Program-made: the position numbers and the translations under genes
Shown: positions 13,714 through 22,862 of the stretch, piece after piece
Layout of the letters: the number at the start of each line of letters is the position of its first letter
Position numbering within the stretch: the stretch's first letter is position 1
NCBI GenBank assembly: GCA_012840345.1
Contig: DULO01000073.1
Span: 1-50,704 of the forward strand
Direction of reading: 5' to 3'
DNA: 50,704 bases
Source of the DNA: Candidatus Fermentithermobacillaceae bacterium
GTDB taxonomy: Bacteria; Bacillota; Sulfobacillia; Fermentithermobacillales; Fermentithermobacillaceae
The notes under the pieces: generated by a model
Seen by the model: the letters and a program-made list of their open reading frames with translations, nothing else
Told to the model about the DNA's origin: nothing
Database searches by the model: none

Positions 13714-14364
13714 CTAGTCTTCCTGTTCGAGGAGTTGCGCGAGTCGCCTGTTAACCGCGTCCAAAGTGGCCTTGACCACCGCTTCCCGCTCATCGTAGCT
13801 GACAGGACACGAGCCTGTAAGCAACTGCTGATGCCCGAAAGCGTTTAAGACTAAAGTCACAAGCGCCACCCTTATGGTCTTGGACATCATCACGCATACA
13901 TCCTGAAGGTCAAAGGATACGTCCGGAGTAAACTGTTCCAACGCGTTGATGGTCGCCCTCGCCGATGCCCTTAGCCAAGCTCGCTGCGTCGGTTGGGCCA
14001 CTTCGCTTCCTTTCACCTCACGGGACCGTACTTGAAGGAACACATTCACTTCCGCCCGGTCAGATTGGGAGACTATCTCCACCCTTCGAAGCTGGACCCT
14101 GTTTGTGTTCTTAGCTGACTCTCCGGCCCCGATTTGAGCCACCGAGATCTTCCTTCGATCCACCGGGACGCCGAAGGCGGCAATTAGAGAAGACTCAATG
14201 TCCCGGACTATGTATTTTACGGCCCGTCCAGAAGAAGCCAGTACATGGATCTCGGCTATGCCGCCGTCTCCCGCCAAGACAACGCGAGCCGTGATGACGT
14301 CCTTAACCTTCTTAAGAATCTCCTCATACTCTCTAGCGGGAACCTTGGGCGTATCGTCAGCCAT
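13714..14364 (-). CDS. Conserved-looking protein of unknown function
   Basis: About 216 residues from the ATG at 14364 (MADDTPKV), preferred to an upstream start at 14415 because GGAAGGTGG stands at the right distance. No signal peptide or membrane segment. The N-terminal third reads like a small alpha/beta domain (EEILKKVKDVITARVVL, GGIAEIHVLA, IVRDIESSLIAAFGVPVDRRKISVAQI). The C-terminal part contains two longer helices around residues 110-210. I recall unnamed homologues in other Bacillota but no functional family. It is followed downstream by the tiny ORF and HD-GYP gene and preceded by the nucleotidyltransferase-like gene, 47 nt away. Confidence 0.75.
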   Translation of the reverse strand: MADDTPKVPAREYEEILKKVKDVITARVVLAGDGGIAEIHVLASSGRAVKYIVRDIESSLIAAFGVPVDRRKISVAQIGAGESAKNTNRVQLRRVEIVSQSDRAEVNVFLQVRSREVKGSEVAQPTQRAWLRASARATINALEQFTPDVSFDLQDVCVMMSKTIRVALVTLVLNAFGHQQLLTGSCPVSYDEREAVVKATLDAVNRRLAQLLEQED

Positions 14365-14411
14365 TATTCCACCTTCCCGATTTCTCAAAAAGCGATCCTC
14401 TCCCGAGAGTG

Positions 14412-15569
14412 TCAATCGGGGGAAAGAACAAACGTGTTACGGCGATATCCCGACGCCTCTCTCTCTTTCACGATCATCTCGGCCATCAACCAAAGACCTG
14501 CCGCCACCAAGCTGTGCCCTCCCAAGACCACCGGTATGGGTGCTTCGCGCGCGGCCTTAGTGAAATCCCTTGTCCACTCATCTTCTATTAACCGGTAGTT
14601 GCCAAGGTCCGAATGGAAACGGTCCCAATCGCTCAAGCGCTTCCTAAGATGGCCGAACACGACCCTGGTGTCGATGAATGCCACGTCGCAGACGGAAGAT
14701 AGATACTGGAAAAACTTAGGAGCGCCCAGATCGCGTATCATGAAACCGAGGAGCGAAACCACTTCCCCTCTTTCTTCACGCCCGAGTGCCTTCATACCTC
14801 TTTCTTCGGAAAAGACCCGCATTCTGTGTACCATGTTGGCGTTTATATAGTGAATAACCGAGGGTCCCACTCTGCCTATGACGGCAACTTCTTTTGAAGG
14901 CTGGCGAAGGACCTCAAAGGCCCTCTGGATATTGTCCCGTGGCCAATCAAGTGAGTCGATAATCGCTTTGGTTCTCGGGCCGCAGTCAGGGTGATTCCCC
15001 AGTATAAGAATGTCAGTCGGCGTGTCCAGGTCGAAATTGACCCTGCCTGAGTTCGGGATCAGTACTCTCCTCATCCCGATATCCCTAAGAAGGATCCCCA
15101 AGGGATTGTCCTTATCAGGAAGCTCAATTTCATCTATGGCTCTCGCCGGCGTAAACGCCACCAAGTCCGCCGACTGGACGTTGTTCATTATGACGACGTT
15201 GCGTTCCCGCTTCAGAGCCATGGCGATCTGCCCGAAGTCTTCGGAAGTTAAAAGAGGGGCGGCGACGCCGCCCATGTACAACACGTTTTCGATTCCGCGC
15301 TTTACTATGATCTCTCTCAAACGCCTTCCAAAGTGGAACTTGGGGGCATCGGGACCTTCCAGGTCCACCGAGACTCCCATTCGCCGGGCTCTGTCGGCCA
15401 AGTCCGGATAATTGGTGGCAAGCACTACCTCTGAGATCGACCTGCAGAGCAGGATCTTCTCCAGGGTGTCCAAGACGACTTCTTTCCGGATTCCAGTGAT
15501 GATCCGGTCGAGTTCGGTCTTGGCTTGTCCACCCTCAAACAAAACCGCTGTTACCTTGGGCTGCAGCAC
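14412..15569 (-). CDS. Nucleotidyltransferase-like (GT-A fold) protein of unknown function
   Basis: 385 residues from GTG 15569 (AGAAGGAA upstream). The first ~200 residues look like a sugar-nucleotide or CofC/MobA-type nucleotidyltransferase fold: LDTLEKILLCRSISEVVLATN, VLYMGGVAAPLLTSEDF (position of a metal-binding acidic loop) and the late D-T-P-x-D motif (FDLDTPTDILIL). The classic N-terminal GGxGxR nucleotide loop is not evident (LFEGGQAKTELDRI takes its place), so catalysis is uncertain. Residues ~210-385 are unlike anything I recognise and end with a segment PVVLGGHSLVAAGLWLMAE. It lies between hpf and the other unknown gene, 28 nt downstream of hpf. Confidence 0.6.
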   Translation of the reverse strand: MLQPKVTAVLFEGGQAKTELDRIITGIRKEVVLDTLEKILLCRSISEVVLATNYPDLADRARRMGVSVDLEGPDAPKFHFGRRLREIIVKRGIENVLYMGGVAAPLLTSEDFGQIAMALKRERNVVIMNNVQSADLVAFTPARAIDEIELPDKDNPLGILLRDIGMRRVLIPNSGRVNFDLDTPTDILILGNHPDCGPRTKAIIDSLDWPRDNIQRAFEVLRQPSKEVAVIGRVGPSVIHYINANMVHRMRVFSEERGMKALGREERGEVVSLLGFMIRDLGAPKFFQYLSSVCDVAFIDTRVVFGHLRKRLSDWDRFHSDLGNYRLIEDEWTRDFTKAAREAPIPVVLGGHSLVAAGLWLMAEMIVKEREASGYRRNTFVLSPD

Positions 15570-16750: not shown

Positions 16751-17131
16751 TTATTTTTGCCTGTCGAAGTTCTGCGGTTTGGGGAGCGCCCTGTCGTAAG
16801 CCGAGAACGCTTTTGACCTCGCTGTAATGTCAAGGATAGCCCGTTGGTCCGCGGCCATTTCTCTCCTCAAGACCTTAGCGATCTCTTCATCGATCTTTAC
16901 GACGGCCGTCAGTATGTCTCTTGCCGGCTCGCGCGCTTCGGCGGGGAGACTCTCCAGGTCGCCGAAGTCCTTAAGTGTCTTGATAGCCATAGTCCTCTGA
17001 TCAATTGCCGCGGCCAGCAACACGAAATCTCTGGCCGCCGCGTGATTGTAGGCCAGTTGGGATGCCGCCAGCAACTCCCTTAAGGCCGCCATGACGTTCT
17101 CAGTATCCGGACCAAGGCCTTCACTAGGCAT
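16751..17131 (-). CDS. FliT-like flagellar chaperone candidate
   Basis: A 126-residue, almost wholly helical protein with no membrane segment, consistent with the FliT/FlgN-type chaperone fold (TENVMAALRELLAASQLAYNHAAARDF, then a second helix AAAIDQRTMAIKTLKDFGDLE and a C-terminal helix). Its start overlaps the end of fliS by 8 nt, which is the usual place of fliT. FliT binds the cap protein FliD before export. The sequence family is weakly conserved, so the call rests mainly on position, size and helical composition. Confidence 0.65.
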   Translation of the reverse strand: MPSEGLGPDTENVMAALRELLAASQLAYNHAAARDFVLLAAAIDQRTMAIKTLKDFGDLESLPAEAREPARDILTAVVKIDEEIAKVLRREMAADQRAILDITARSKAFSAYDRALPKPQNFDRQK

Positions 17132-17566: not shown

Positions 17567-19369
17567 CTACATGTTGCTGTACAGGCCGGCCAGTTGAGAA
17601 GAGAGCCACGCTCCTTGCGTATTCAGTCTCGATAGCAAGACTTCCAGCGCGCTGAACTGCCTCTGCAAGTATGCCAGCCTCATGTCCAGACTGCGCTGCT
17701 TGCTCGCGATCTGGCGGGCCAAGGCCTCGTCTTCAGCCTCGATTTGAGCCTTTCTCATGGGGAGATAGCCATCAACAGCCGAGTACCTTCTCACGGCCGT
17801 CCTGAGCGCGTTCAGAATGCCTGTGTTTTCTTGATACACCTGCACTTCCGTTATGCGGGAGTGTTGGCCGTCATTGGAGCCGTTGCACACCAGGCGGATC
17901 TTATCGGTGGTAACCGGTGTGAAGGTAAGGCTGATAGTGCCTCCGCTATTGCCGCTAACCTCGCCCACGGTCACCCAATCCGAACCGTCCCAGTATTGAA
18001 CCGTAACGTCCTTAATCCCGTATTGGGCGGCGGGCATGGAATCACTGTTTACTGTGCTTATGAGCACCCGGTCGATGGTCTTTTGACCGGCAAACGATAT
18101 CTCTAGGGTATCTGGGAACTCTCCGGGCGTATCGTCCTGCCACATGCCGGCGGAAAGGTCTCCGTCAATCACGCAGAGCGGGCTTGTCCCGGCCGCGGTG
18201 CTCGACGCCGAGGCTTGGGCGCCGGCGGAACTGCGCGATACGTTCACGGTCTTTGCCCCGAAAAACGCCGCGACTGCTTCCCGGTTCTCGGCGAGGGCTT
18301 TGGTGAGCTTGGCTTCATCAAGAGTCAGCTTCCCGTCCTTGGAGTAGGTGCCGGCGGCGCCTGTGCTGATTCCAAGCTGGCTCGCGAACCGAAACCCATC
18401 CGGGGCTCCATCGACTTCCCGGAATAACACGCTCTGGATATCCCGCAACAACCTCTGCAACAAGGGGTCGCCAAACAATACCCCGCCTTGCTTAGTGTCA
18501 GCATTCCATGAGTCGTACTTCTTCACGGTATCAATCAACGAGTTGTACTCGGCGATAAACGCTTTCACTTGGGAGACTACGGCTTGGTCATCGTAACCGA
18601 CCGTGACCACGGTCTTACCGCCGGCGCCCGTAACCGGGTCCGCCGCGGCCGCGAGGTTCAGCGTAACCCCGGGAATAGCGTCGGCTACTTTGTTTGAGTC
18701 TCTCAAGAAGGTGATGCCGTTGATGGTGAAACGCGCGTCGCTTGCCGAACGGACCTCGTTTAGGGTACCGTCCGCGTCCCTAACCCCTAACAGCGTCCAT
18801 CCGGCTTCGTCTCCAAAGGACATGCTGCCCGCCGTACCTTCCTTTTCGGCCGTAAGGGTCAGCCTGTACTCGCCCGGCGCTACTTGCAGTACCGCGGCGG
18901 ATACCCCTATGCCTTCGGTGTCGTTGATCCGGGCCGCCAGCGACTCCAAGGTCTCAGTGCCCATCAAAGTAATGGTCTTGCCGTTAAGCGTGAGATCTCC
19001 GGTGATGCCGAGGGCAGTGTTGGAAGTGCCGAAGGATCCTGAGGTGACGACCTGGCTCCTGGCCAACGACAGCACCTGTATCTCGTAGGAGCCCGTGGGA
19101 GCGGAACTCTCCGCGCTGGCGCTTAGGACCGCGGAATCAGATACCGATACGGTCTTCTGGCCAAAACCGCCTACGCTCAGAAGGGACGTAAGACTGGACG
19201 CGAGGGAATCGAGCTTGGTCTTAATCGCGTCCCATGCCTGCTTGCGTACATCAAGACTGGTGCGCCTGGCTTCAAGTTGCTGAAGAGGCTGGCGCTCGAC
19301 TTTCATGAGTTCGTTTATCAGAGTTTCCGTATCGAGGCCCGATACGCCGATAGTAATCCCGGTACCCAA
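17567..19369 (-). CDS. fliD: Flagellar cap protein FliD with an inserted discoidin-like domain
   Basis: 600 residues from the TTG at 19369, which has AAAGGAGG correctly placed; a longer frame reaches 19417. The N-terminus GTGITIGVSGLDTETLINELMKVERQPL and the C-terminal helices (ALARQIASKQRSLDMRLAYLQRQFSALEVLLSRLNTQ, split across two coils) are FliD_N and FliD_C. Between them, about residues 376-515, sits a domain unlike FliD: CVIDGDLSAGMWQDD, TLEISFAGQKTIDRVLIST, VTVQYWDGSDWVTVGEV, DKIRLVCNGS and RITEVQVYQE. That is the order of the F5/8 type C (discoidin, CBM32-like) beta-sandwich. FliD caps the filament, so the domain would be displayed at the tip. A SigD-type promoter precedes the gene. 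Confidence 0.93.
   Translation of the reverse strand: MGTGITIGVSGLDTETLINELMKVERQPLQQLEARRTSLDVRKQAWDAIKTKLDSLASSLTSLLSVGGFGQKTVSVSDSAVLSASAESSAPTGSYEIQVLSLARSQVVTSGSFGTSNTALGITGDLTLNGKTITLMGTETLESLAARINDTEGIGVSAAVLQVAPGEYRLTLTAEKEGTAGSMSFGDEAGWTLLGVRDADGTLNEVRSASDARFTINGITFLRDSNKVADAIPGVTLNLAAAADPVTGAGGKTVVTVGYDDQAVVSQVKAFIAEYNSLIDTVKKYDSWNADTKQGGVLFGDPLLQRLLRDIQSVLFREVDGAPDGFRFASQLGISTGAAGTYSKDGKLTLDEAKLTKALAENREAVAAFFGAKTVNVSRSSAGAQASASSTAAGTSPLCVIDGDLSAGMWQDDTPGEFPDTLEISFAGQKTIDRVLISTVNSDSMPAAQYGIKDVTVQYWDGSDWVTVGEVSGNSGGTISLTFTPVTTDKIRLVCNGSNDGQHSRITEVQVYQENTGILNALRTAVRRYSAVDGYLPMRKAQIEAEDEALARQIASKQRSLDMRLAYLQRQFSALEVLLSRLNTQGAWLSSQLAGLYSNM
17825..18244 (-). other. Segment of fliD encoding the discoidin (F5/8 type C)-like domain
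   Basis: The segment begins in a Ser/Ala/Thr-rich linker (SSAGAQASASSTAAG) and ends at VQVYQENTG before the FliD C-terminal helices resume. The pattern 'IDGD...W', two hydrophobic beta strands with Asp-Arg, 'YWDGSDW' and a closing 'ITEVQVY' is that of carbohydrate- or lipid-binding galactose-binding-like folds. Domain boundaries are approximate. Confidence 0.75.
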
Positions 19370-19422
19370 AGGCGGGTCCTCCTTTCGAGAAGACAACGGA
19401 ACAACGGGTAAACACACTTTGT

Positions 19423-19463: not shown

Positions 19464-19703
19464 TTATTGCTCTTTCACTTTGTCTCCGAGCAGAGATATG
19501 TCAAAAGCGGGGTCTTTGGCGAGGTCCATCTCCTGAGCGACTTCTCGCTCGACTTCCTCTCTCAGTACTTTTGTGCCCGGCGGGGCGGTGATCCCGAGCT
19601 TTACAATAGACTTGGAACCTTTCCCCCTAATCTCGGTAACGGTTATGACGACGTCGTCCCCTATCTTTATCGCCTGTCCCCGTTTTCGGGTTAGAACGAG
19701 CAT
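19464..19703 (-). CDS. csrA: Carbon storage regulator CsrA
   Basis: A 79-residue RNA-binding regulator. The start MLVLTRKRGQAIKIGDDVVI and KLGITAPPGTKVLREEV contain the RNA-contacting first and last strands of the CsrA fold. It represses translation by binding GGA motifs near ribosome sites, in B. subtilis that of flagellin hag. The gene follows fliW by 3 nt, the standard partner pair: FliW binds and inactivates CsrA, and flagellin competes for FliW. Here fliD, not hag, follows. The C-terminal extension (after residue ~60) is longer than in E. coli, as usual for Bacillota with FliW. Confidence 0.97.
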   Translation of the reverse strand: MLVLTRKRGQAIKIGDDVVITVTEIRGKGSKSIVKLGITAPPGTKVLREEVEREVAQEMDLAKDPAFDISLLGDKVKEQ

Positions 19704-19706
19704 TAA

Positions 19707-20162
19707 TTACCCCGTCCTCTTCATGAGACTCTCGAGCGTCGAAAACACGTAGTGTCTTGTAGTATACTCCGGCGACATGACAATAACCTGCTTCCCTAAC
19801 CGCGTCGCGGGATTTAGGACCAGGGGCGCCTGAAGGTTAGCGGTCATCTTGCGAATGTCGGGCGGGACTGTCACTACGCTTAAGAGAACGAGGTCGTCCG
19901 GAGACGCCCCCCCAAGATCGGCCAGGTCGGACGGGCAAAACTCCGGGTCGTAGTCGGGAAAGACGTCGTACAGAGACAAAGTCACAAACCCAAGGGAAGG
20001 CTCTTGAACCGACTGAAGCCACCGCAAAACGCTGTTTCCTCCTGCGAAGTCCAAGACCACGTACTCCTTGAACTCTGGGAAACCAATAAGCCCATTGGGG
20101 AAGGTAATAACCCGCGACGAGTCGATTTCCACCTGTCCGAATCTCTTGGTTTGAACTAGCAT
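19707..20162 (-). CDS. fliW: Flagellar assembly factor FliW
   Basis: 151 residues. Family features: VITFPNGLIGFPEFKEYVVLDF, the segment PSLGFVTLSLYDVFPDYDPEF and the late region APLVLNPATRLGKQVI. FliW is an antagonist of CsrA and a chaperone-like binder of flagellin. It is adjacent to csrA and follows flgL after 27 nt. The typical yviE gene between flgL and fliW is missing. Confidence 0.95.
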   Translation of the reverse strand: MLVQTKRFGQVEIDSSRVITFPNGLIGFPEFKEYVVLDFAGGNSVLRWLQSVQEPSLGFVTLSLYDVFPDYDPEFCPSDLADLGGASPDDLVLLSVVTVPPDIRKMTANLQAPLVLNPATRLGKQVIVMSPEYTTRHYVFSTLESLMKRTG

Positions 20163-20189: not shown

Positions 20190-20999
20190 CTATTTCAAGT
20201 AATCAAGGAGCGTCGGTTGTATCAACCTGGCGCCGACTGCCAAAGCCGCTTGATAGGCCGCCTCAGCCGATTGGAGTCTTACCAGAAGTTCCGATAGGTC
20301 GACGTCCTCAGAACTGGACAAGAGTTTCTTGTACTCGATGTCCAGGGATGTCATCTTCCCGTTGAGCATTTCCAAGCGGTTGATCCTGGCGCCGTTCTCC
20401 GCTCTTTGTGACAGGACCGCGTCGGCGGCTACTTCTAGGGCCGCCCTGCCGGCTCGTATTTGGGACACGTCCGATGCGGAGAGGCCGTTCTCCAGAGTCA
20501 AAAGGTCGTCCGCCAACTGGTTTAGTAGCCCGGTCAGATCATTGACGGTGACAGTGAGGCCGGGACCAACTTTCCACACCGGCATGGTACCGATAAGAAG
20601 GCTCTTGCCTTCCATAGTTCGCTGGGCGATGCTCATGACTTCGTCCCGTAGCTGGTGGATTTCCATGGCTATGTACGCACGGGCGTCATCGGGAGTGGTC
20701 GCCGTCTCCCCCTGGATAGCCAGGTCCTGCGCCCGGTTGATTATCTGGTTGATGTCTCCGAGAGCTTGCTCGACCTGGGACATCCAAGCCAAAGCCCGAT
20801 CGGCGTTCCGAAGGTACTGCTGGTTAATGGCTATATGGTGCCTTAACGCAATGGACCTCTCCACCCCGATGGGATCATCCTGGGGCTTGGAGTAGTTCAT
20901 CCCAGTCGTCACCATATCTTGGAGTTTAGCCAGCTTGGACTCAGCGTGGTTTACGCTGTATAGGTAGTTCCTCTCAACGGTGCGGTCAGTCACTCTCAC
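20190..20999 (-). CDS. flgL: Flagellar hook-filament junction protein FlgL (HAP3)
   Basis: 269 residues, a little shorter than B. subtilis FlgL (298). The flagellin-like N-terminal helix (MRVTDRTVERNYLYSVNHAESKLAKLQDMVTTG in two parts) carries PQDDPIGVERSIALR, and a coiled segment AWMSQVEQALGDINQIINRAQDLAIQG follows. The C-terminal part (ALEVAADAVLSQRAENGARINRLEML ... LVRLQSAEAAYQAALAVGARLIQPTLLDYL) is the matching flagellin_C. FlgL joins hook and filament with FlgK, whose gene precedes it by 24 nt. Confidence 0.94.
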   Translation of the reverse strand: MRVTDRTVERNYLYSVNHAESKLAKLQDMVTTGMNYSKPQDDPIGVERSIALRHHIAINQQYLRNADRALAWMSQVEQALGDINQIINRAQDLAIQGETATTPDDARAYIAMEIHQLRDEVMSIAQRTMEGKSLLIGTMPVWKVGPGLTVTVNDLTGLLNQLADDLLTLENGLSASDVSQIRAGRAALEVAADAVLSQRAENGARINRLEMLNGKMTSLDIEYKKLLSSSEDVDLSELLVRLQSAEAAYQAALAVGARLIQPTLLDYLK

Positions 21000-21023: not shown

Positions 21024-22409
21024 CTACCTGCCGGCAATGCCCATCCTGCTGATAATGGTATCGATCATCTCGTCCGCTATGGTTATCACCCTGCTGGCGG
21101 CGTTGAAAGCGTGTTGCTGCCTTACCAGGGTGGCGACTTCCTCGTCAATCGAGACACCGCTGATGCTGTCTTTGCGGTTCTGGAGCTCCTTGACCAGGAT
21201 TTCCTGTACCCCAAAGCCGCTGTCCACCTTCTGACCCACCGCTCCCAGCCGGCCTATTATCGCGCTCCACATGTCGTTGTAAGTGGGGCTGCTCGCTCCA
21301 TCGTCACCCTCGATCCTGTCGGCAATGGCCAAAGCGATAGAGCCGTCCAAGGGGTCGCCCGGCACTCCGGCCGCGCAAATGGTACCGGGATCGGCCACTA
21401 TCCATGGGGCTACTTGAGCCGAGTGCAGATAATCGGCGCCGTCGGTAACAAAAAAGTCACCGGGCGTACCCGTTAGGGGGAAACCGTTTCTGTGGATGGC
21501 GTTGATCTCGTCAACGATGGTCCTAAAAAGGTTCTCGACTTCGGTCTTGAAGTCTCTGACCAGAACATCCCGGGCTTCCTTGTAACCGCCGAGCTTCCCT
21601 CCGACCGATGGGATAACCGTGTATTCGCCGGGAGCGCTGACCCACCTTACCTCGGTCCCTCCCAAAGTGAACGCGACCTCAAGTTTGTAGCTATGGTCCT
21701 TATCCACGAGGGGGAAACCGTTGACAGTAACCCGGACCGACTCTCCTTCGGCTATGTGAGTGACTGTGGCTCCGGTCAATTCAGCCAGTTCGTCTAGAAG
21801 GATGTCTCTTTGGTCCATTAAGTCAGAGGCAGGCTCCCGCCTTGCCAAAGCCCTGGATATTTCCAAGTTGAGGCTCACAATTCTTTCGCTGAGCAGGTTC
21901 ACCCGCCTGACACAAGCCTCGATGCTGGCTTCCAGGTCCACGGACATGGCGTCAATCTGTCCGCCTATGTGCTTGAACAAGTCTACCAAAGACCTGCCCC
22001 GCTCCATCACCTGGGCACGGGCGCTCGCCGAACTGGCGTCCACGCTCAAGTCGTGCCACGCTGACCAGAACAAATCCAGAGAAGTCCTTATGCTGGCATC
22101 TGAAGGTTCGGACGCCACCACCTGCAGGTACTCCATGACATCTTTCTGGACTTGAAAAGCCGCTTTCTTGGCGGACTCGGCTCTTAGGACCGAATCTACA
22201 AACTGGTCTCTGAGCCTGCGTACGTCGATCACTCTTACTCCGGCTCCCGATACCGCCGCCTGCCTTTGTATGATGGGCTCCAAAACGGCTTCCTGACGGG
22301 AGTAACCGATTGTGGAGGCATTGGCCACGTTGTGGCTGGTAACGTCCATGGTCCGCTTAGCGGTCATTAGAGCGGATCTCCCGATTTCGAAGATGGAAAA
22401 CGTCGACAT
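21024..22409 (-). CDS. flgK: Flagellar hook-filament junction protein FlgK (HAP1)
   Basis: 461 residues. The N-terminus MSTFSIFEIGRSALMTAKRTMDVTSHNVANASTIGYSRQ (quoted in outline) contains the rod/hook-family NVANASTIGYSRQ motif. The C-terminus ISGVSIDEEVATLVRQQHAFNAASRVI is the flg_bbr_C / HAP1 signature. The middle is variable. The start has AGGTGTTAAG upstream. It is followed by flgL and preceded by flgN, whose product is its export chaperone. Confidence 0.96.
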   Translation of the reverse strand: MSTFSIFEIGRSALMTAKRTMDVTSHNVANASTIGYSRQEAVLEPIIQRQAAVSGAGVRVIDVRRLRDQFVDSVLRAESAKKAAFQVQKDVMEYLQVVASEPSDASIRTSLDLFWSAWHDLSVDASSASARAQVMERGRSLVDLFKHIGGQIDAMSVDLEASIEACVRRVNLLSERIVSLNLEISRALARREPASDLMDQRDILLDELAELTGATVTHIAEGESVRVTVNGFPLVDKDHSYKLEVAFTLGGTEVRWVSAPGEYTVIPSVGGKLGGYKEARDVLVRDFKTEVENLFRTIVDEINAIHRNGFPLTGTPGDFFVTDGADYLHSAQVAPWIVADPGTICAAGVPGDPLDGSIALAIADRIEGDDGASSPTYNDMWSAIIGRLGAVGQKVDSGFGVQEILVKELQNRKDSISGVSIDEEVATLVRQQHAFNAASRVITIADEMIDTIISRMGIAGR

Positions 22410-22427: not shown

Positions 22428-22862
22428 TTAAGACTTCCGGTCGAACACCAGCGGCCCGGTCGTGGAAGCGTTCCCGTAACCGCTTTGTTGGGGCAGCAGG
22501 ATCTTAAGCCCGTGTTGAACCACCTGCAGCGAGGACTTAACCAAGGCCATGTTGACCTCGTTAAGGCGCCTAAGCTGAAGCAGCTTCTTTCTCAAGGTCT
22601 CGGAAACGCCATCGGAGCCGGCCTCTTCCGTAGAGTCCTTCGCGTCCGAAAACGGATGAAGCCGAACCCGCTCCTGTTCTAGCTGGTCCAGCTTCGTCAC
22701 CAAGCCTTCCTCTGACGCGACAAGTTCCGAAAGCCTTGAGACATCACCTCTCACCAAGACGTCACGCTTTTCCTCGGATAGGCCTATAAGCCTATCGAGA
22801 ACACAAGCCATTTCAGACAATGAGGAACTAAGGGATTGAGATGTCGCCATGAATTGAAGCAC
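22428..22862 (-). CDS. flgN: FlgN-type flagellar export chaperone
   Basis: A 144-residue helical protein with long amphipathic helices (VLDRLIGLSEEKRDVLVRGDVSRLSELVASEEGLVTKLDQLEQERVRL in outline) and a C-terminal segment NMALVKSSLQVVQHGLKIL, the FlgN pattern. The tail GYGNASTTGPLVFDRKS resembles the end of many clostridial FlgN proteins. It chaperones FlgK and FlgL, encoded directly downstream. Start may be GTG 22862 or ATG 22850. B. subtilis calls this gene yvyG. Confidence 0.85.
   Translation of the reverse strand: MLQFMATSQSLSSSLSEMACVLDRLIGLSEEKRDVLVRGDVSRLSELVASEEGLVTKLDQLEQERVRLHPFSDAKDSTEEAGSDGVSETLRKKLLQLRRLNEVNMALVKSSLQVVQHGLKILLPQQSGYGNASTTGPLVFDRKS

What the first reader, a model, noticed from the sequence alone, without database searches (positions are those of the whole stretch)
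17825..18244. Flagellar cap protein FliD carries an inserted discoidin-like domain
About 140 residues between the FliD core and its C-terminal coils have the strand order and end motif (ITEVQVY) of F5/8 type C / CBM32 domains, preceded by a Ser/Ala linker. FliD sits at the filament tip, so the cell may use its flagellum tip to bind sugars or surfaces. The variable FliD domains are known to differ, but I do not know of this fold there.
Basis: partly seen in the sequence, partly recalled or inferred. Interest (0 to 1): 0.66.

Follow-up and report, generated by a model that had tools for sequence, protein, structure and literature searches.

The report
Flagellar tip cap carrying sugar-binding domain
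The protein that caps the tip of this bacterium's flagellum contains an extra domain with the fold of carbohydrate-binding modules from secreted enzymes, and the same arrangement recurs in about twenty other Bacillota species, which suggests (but does not show) that these bacteria use the flagellum tip to stick to sugars.

Summary
The FliD gene (17567-19369, minus strand) encodes a flagellar cap with a ~147-residue CBM32 / F5-8 type C (discoidin) domain at 17807-18253. Pfam PF22633 scores above its cut-off (E 1.2e-10). AlphaFold models the domain at pLDDT 92.7, and its best structural match is the galactose-binding CBM32 of NanJ (2v72, TM 0.80/0.86). The domain interrupts FliD_C inside D1, next to the C-terminal helix, at the same junction as the uncharacterised D4 domain of Campylobacter jejuni FliD. 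It is not a D2/D3 head domain. Sister species in the same family lack it and align straight through the site. In the GTDB class, all 16 genomes matching the domain profile (of 154; 123 have FliD) carry it in FliD, one copy each. Five more Bacillota genomes from other classes also have it in FliD. Two genomes carry it at a second FliD site, in the head. Between families it is often better conserved than the FliD core. Sugar or surface binding at the tip is the best explanation but is untested, and the window's copy has lost a 7-residue loop that the others keep. No held paper reports this. I rate it a new variant of a known kind (FliD with an accessory D4 domain).

The parts
17567..19369 (-). 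fliD, flagellar cap protein, 600 aa from TTG 19369 (the longest ORF begins at GTG 19417)
   Evidence: FliD_N and FliD_C far above cut-off; start and ribosome-binding site read from the sequence
19378..19385 (-). Shine-Dalgarno sequence AAAGGAGG of fliD
   Evidence: sequence, 8 bases before TTG
19052..19342 (-). FliD_N (PF02465)
   Evidence: E 3.1e-26
18256..18745 (-). FliD_C (PF07195), first part: end of the D2-D3 head and most of D1
17807..18253 (-). inserted CBM32 / F5-8 type C (discoidin-like) domain
   Evidence: PF22633; absent in sister FliDs; AlphaFold pLDDT 92.7; Foldseek best match CBM32 2v72
17891..18172 (-). core match to PF22633 within the domain
17621..17806 (-). FliD_C, last part: C-terminal D1/D0 helix
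17124..17537 (-). fliS (context)
   Evidence: PF02561 6.6e-38
16751..17131 (-). probable fliT (context)
   Evidence: PF05400 2.6e-5, below the curated cut-off
19464..19703 (-). csrA (context)
   Evidence: recognised by sequence; not scanned
19707..20162 (-). fliW (context)
   Evidence: recognised by sequence; not scanned
20190..20999 (-). flgL (context)
   Evidence: Flagellin_N 4.2e-17 and position next to flgK
21024..22409 (-). flgK (context)
   Evidence: FlgK_D1 6.5e-47
22428..22862 (-). flgN (context)
   Evidence: PF05130 4.5e-16

Best explanation
The protein is a flagellar cap (FliD) that has gained a CBM32-type carbohydrate-binding domain as its D4 domain. Shown: the cap homology, the CBM32 fold (predicted with high confidence), the insertion into D1 beside the C-terminal helix, recurrence in 21 genomes, and restriction of this domain subtype to FliD within the class. 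Inferred: FliD assembles as a pentamer as in other species, so five domains sit around the filament tip, away from the flagellin exit cavity, and together bind a glycan or glycan-coated surface (particle, cell wall, partner cell). The tip would then hold the cell to a surface without altering filament assembly. The ligand is unknown.
For: Pfam, AlphaFold and Foldseek (top matches are sugar-binding CBM32s) fix the identity. The insertion site is that of C. jejuni D4, which is far from the cap cavity and was proposed to bind heparin. All 16 class genomes with the domain carry one copy, in FliD. Between families it is often better conserved than the core. The nearest relatives outside FliD that were examined are F5/8 type C domains in dehydrogenase or alpha-galactosidase-associated proteins. 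Caps are reported to mediate adhesion in several bacteria.
Against: No ligand or binding test. CBM32-type folds include members that bind no sugar (for example APC10 and IFT25 among the Foldseek matches). The window copy lacks a 7-residue loop kept in 19 of 20 FliD copies and has a longer domain branch than core branch. Closely related caps do without the domain.
Confidence: 0.6

Rival explanations
1. The domain is a structural spacer: it stabilises the cap, or sets the angle between D1 and the D2-D3 plate, and binds no sugar.
For: In C. jejuni the D4 domain lies between a neighbour's D3 and FlgL, and is offered as the reason for a different cap angle (PMC12221982). Strong conservation would also fit a packing role.
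Against: Sister species have a cap without it, with no other change visible at the site. The same domain sits at a different place, in the head, in L032 and L033, where it could not play the same packing role.
Confidence: 0.2
2. The domain binds glycans of the cell's own flagellum or envelope (glycosylated flagellin or cell wall), helping cap assembly or filament growth rather than attachment to outside surfaces.
For: The site is next to the top of the filament. Domain and core are inherited together in the window's family.
Against: No flagellin glycosylation was looked for. Sister caps in the same family need no such domain.
Confidence: 0.1
3. In this organism the domain is a decaying passenger that no longer binds anything.
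For: Loss of a 7-residue loop with an aromatic and a glycine that other copies keep; lower model confidence there; longer branch in the domain than in the core (0.82 against 0.48).
Against: Intact frame; identity to relatives is as high as in the core (51-53% against 48-52%); good overall model.
Confidence: 0.09
4. The stretch is an ordinary FliD D2/D3 head domain, or an assembly artefact.
For: FliD heads are variable and beta-rich (general knowledge).
Against: The D2-D3 head is present separately and the insert matches CBM32, not FliD. The same architecture is in the closed chromosome CP062796.1 (L049) and in many independent genomes.
Confidence: 0.01

Closest known systems
FliD of Campylobacter jejuni with its D4 domain (6SIH, 9GSX; PMC7316729, PMC12221982)
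   Same: An accessory domain of similar size at the same D1 junction before the C-terminal helix; D4 was proposed to account for heparin binding.
   Different: No sequence similarity between the CBM32 profile and C. jejuni FliD at E up to 1. The fold of C. jejuni D4 was not compared here.
FliD of Vibrio and Helicobacter with D4 / D4-D5 domains (PMC13106801)
   Same: FliD with an extra domain not needed for filament assembly (Vibrio).
   Different: The Vibrio D4 is helical, sits on top of the cap and was linked to the membrane sheath.
CBM32 / F5-8 type C modules of secreted enzymes (NanJ 2V72, NedA, chitosan-binding modules 4ZXE and 4ZY9)
   Same: Same fold (TM 0.80/0.86 to 2V72) and Pfam families PF22633 and PF00754.
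   Different: Those are attached to enzymes; here the host protein is a flagellar cap. Only about 18-23% identity to the solved ones.
FliD of Pelotomaculum thermopropionicum, reported to bind methanogen cells (review PMC4009794)
   Same: A thermophilic Bacillota whose cap protein binds methanogen cells: a precedent for a cap that recognises partner cells.
   Different: Whether that FliD has a CBM32 insert was not tested here.

Membership tests
FliD (flagellar cap) | FliD_N and FliD_C domains | tested here: met
   3.1e-26 and 2.4e-43, far above cut-off
FliD (flagellar cap) | fold of solved caps | tested here: met
   Foldseek: Salmonella cap 9gnz E 2.5e-27, Campylobacter cap 9gsx 3.3e-26
FliD (flagellar cap) | fliS and other late flagellar genes next door | tested here: met
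   fliS, flgL, flgK, flgN
FliD (flagellar cap) | assembles as an oligomer at the filament tip | not testable with these tools
   known from other species
CBM32 / F5-8 type C (discoidin) fold | profile match above the curated cut-off | tested here: met
   PF22633 42.3 bits against 27.8; 12 of 12 homologues match
CBM32 / F5-8 type C (discoidin) fold | jelly-roll fold like solved CBM32s | tested here: met
   model pLDDT 92.7; 2v72 TM 0.80/0.86
CBM32 / F5-8 type C (discoidin) fold | residues that contact sugar or calcium | not tested
   no coordinates to superpose; the window copy lacks a conserved 7-residue loop
CBM32 / F5-8 type C (discoidin) fold | binds carbohydrate | not testable with these tools
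   needs a binding experiment
FliD D4 domain of the C. jejuni kind | insert within the D1 bundle before the C-terminal helix | tested here: met
   C. jejuni residues 418 to 558 flank the same profile junction
FliD D4 domain of the C. jejuni kind | homology of the inserted domain itself | tested here: inconclusive
   no sequence match at E up to 1; folds not compared

The most novel reading that the evidence does not exclude
A dedicated lectin-tipped flagellum: a CBM32 subtype that, within its class, occurs only in FliD, has been gained or lost repeatedly and occupies two different cap sites, and is held as tightly as the cap itself or more so because it recognises one shared ligand, for example a polymer or a partner cell's surface in anaerobic communities.
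Probability: 0.3. Interest if true: 0.75.

Novelty: new variant of a known kind. Interest (0 to 1): 0.52.

Why it matters
Adhesion by the flagellar cap has been reported for several bacteria, often without direct proof or a recognisable binding domain in FliD. Here FliD has an identifiable carbohydrate-binding fold in a defined slot, present in some species and cleanly absent in sisters, so whether the cap is an adhesin can be tested by isolating or removing one domain. It also points to the D1 junction as a general slot for accessory domains.

Tried and rejected
Ordinary D2/D3 domain: rejected. Assembly artefact: rejected, since a closed chromosome has the same architecture (L049). Several such domains per genome: not found. 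Thermomicrobium roseum FliD, which tblastn aligned over 96% of the query, looked like a case in another phylum, but it has a different ~85-residue insert without a CBM32 match. A single origin of the FliD domains was neither shown nor rejected (AU p 0.25). Literature searches for FliD with discoidin (no papers), FliD with galactose-binding (6 papers) and CBM32 with flagell- (46 papers, 20 listed) showed, by title and abstract, no paper on such a cap; the library lacks most subscription journals.

Full report
What is there. The minus-strand ORF 17567-19417 is FliD, in a standard late flagellar cluster: flgN, flgK, flgL, fliW, csrA, fliD, fliS and a probable fliT. The start is probably TTG 19369, eight bases after AAAGGAGG, giving 600 aa. 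FliD_N and FliD_C both score far above cut-off. FliD_C is interrupted, and the gap holds PF22633, a galactose-binding F5/8 type C family, at E 1.2e-10 and above its cut-off. It is the only match to that family in the genome.

Fold. From 12 homologues AlphaFold models the domain at mean pLDDT 92.7. Foldseek's best match in the PDB is the CBM32 of C. perfringens NanJ with galactose (2v72, E 9.7e-12, TM 0.80/0.86), followed by chitosan-binding CBM32s of Paenibacillus, CBM32s in complex with Tn antigen or galactose, and EndoD's CBM32. The full-length model (pLDDT 86.3, pTM 0.64) matches the Salmonella and Campylobacter caps, and CBM32s with the insert.

Site. A profile of FliDs without the domain was laid on solved caps. 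The D2-D3 construct of Salmonella (5h5t) covers profile positions 65-246, and the D1-D2-D3 construct of E. coli (5h5v) covers 37-391. The insert falls after about position 360, so in D1, just before the C-terminal helix. In C. jejuni FliD, position 359 is residue 418 and the C-terminal helix begins at 558, so the D4 domain of C. jejuni sits at the same junction. That D4 was described as an insert in the D1 helix bundle and postulated to be related to heparin binding (PMC7316729). [quoted passage not shown]

Presence and absence. Named relatives place the genome near Candidatus Fermentithermobacillaceae. Within that family the window's genus and two others have the domain and two genera lack it; the three genomes searched from another family of the order also lack it. 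The lacking FliDs align straight from ...LF to the C-terminal helix. Across the class, 123 of 154 genomes have FliD_C and 16 of 154 have a match to the domain profile, one each, all inside FliD. In 398 genomes of the phylum, four more FliD cases score above 100 bits, while every other match apart from the window's own scores under 50 bits, and none of those examined lies in a FliD frame. A fifth case came from one of those classes. In the classes of the other cases they stand alone: 1 of 83, 1 of 98 and 1 of 15 genomes. On a FliD core tree (a quick search with SH-aLRT support only) presence changes at least eight times.

Two sites. In L032 and L033 the same domain lies in the D2-D3 head (profile about 198-200) instead of D1. 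These two form a supported pair on both the domain tree and the core tree. The trees do not show whether the domain moved within FliD or was acquired twice; a single origin of all FliD copies is not rejected (AU p 0.25).

Constraint. Outer domains of flagellar proteins are usually the variable part (general knowledge). Here, comparing the domain-bearing FliDs of the window's family with those of families f10, f13 and f16, the insert is more conserved than the core in every pair: for example L004/L011 55% against 38%, window/L011 47% against 35%, L002/L010 48% against 36%. In pairs with f25 (L012) it is about equal. Shared selection and gene transfer between caps could both give this. Columns more uniform in FliD copies than in the non-FliD relatives include D61 (19 of 20 against 7 of 24), P74 (19 against 8) and N127 (19 against 7).

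The window copy. It lacks seven residues of the loop after DGDLS, with an aromatic and a glycine that 19 of 20 FliD copies keep. The model is less sure there (block mean pLDDT 78), and the copy's domain branch is longer than its core branch (0.82 against 0.48). The reading frame is intact. This copy may have changed ligand or weakened binding.

Mechanism. Shown: the predicted fold, the site, the recurrence, and the restriction of this subtype to FliD within the class. Inferred from other species: FliD is a pentamer at the tip, so five copies are displayed there. Inferred from the fold: glycan binding with avidity. The one flagellin found besides FlgL is a 279-aa frame elsewhere in the genome, and no such domain was found outside FliD, so any binding by this domain would be at the tip. 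Ligand candidates are only leads: the closed relative Ca. F. carboniphilus is reported to have few glycoside hydrolases apart from GlcNAc-related ones (GH18, GH3; PMC10215811), and FliD of Pelotomaculum thermopropionicum binds methanogen cells (review PMC4009794).

Novelty. Accessory FliD domains are known (C. jejuni D4; Vibrio helical D4, PMC13106801). I found no paper in the held library that reports a CBM32/discoidin domain in FliD. It is a new variant of a known kind.

Noticed in passing
L123:2974-4950 (Thermomicrobium roseum megaplasmid fliD): FliD with a different ~85-residue insert (about residues 486-574) at the same D1 site, without any Pfam match; supports the site as a general slot for accessory domains.
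   Followed up: partly
L032, L033: The same CBM32 domain sits in the D2-D3 head of FliD instead of D1.
   Followed up: yes
L034, L035: FliDs whose head region (D2-D3) appears to be duplicated.
   Followed up: no
L036, L037: FliDs with another, unidentified insert of about 100 residues at the head site.
   Followed up: no
G000:C1:59867-60283 (L116): The only flagellin found besides flgL lies on another contig, in a 279-aa frame, and is not part of the fliD cluster.
   Followed up: partly
window 13714-14415 and 14412-15569, minus strand: Two overlapping ORFs next to the flagellar cluster with no Pfam match at E 0.001.
   Followed up: no
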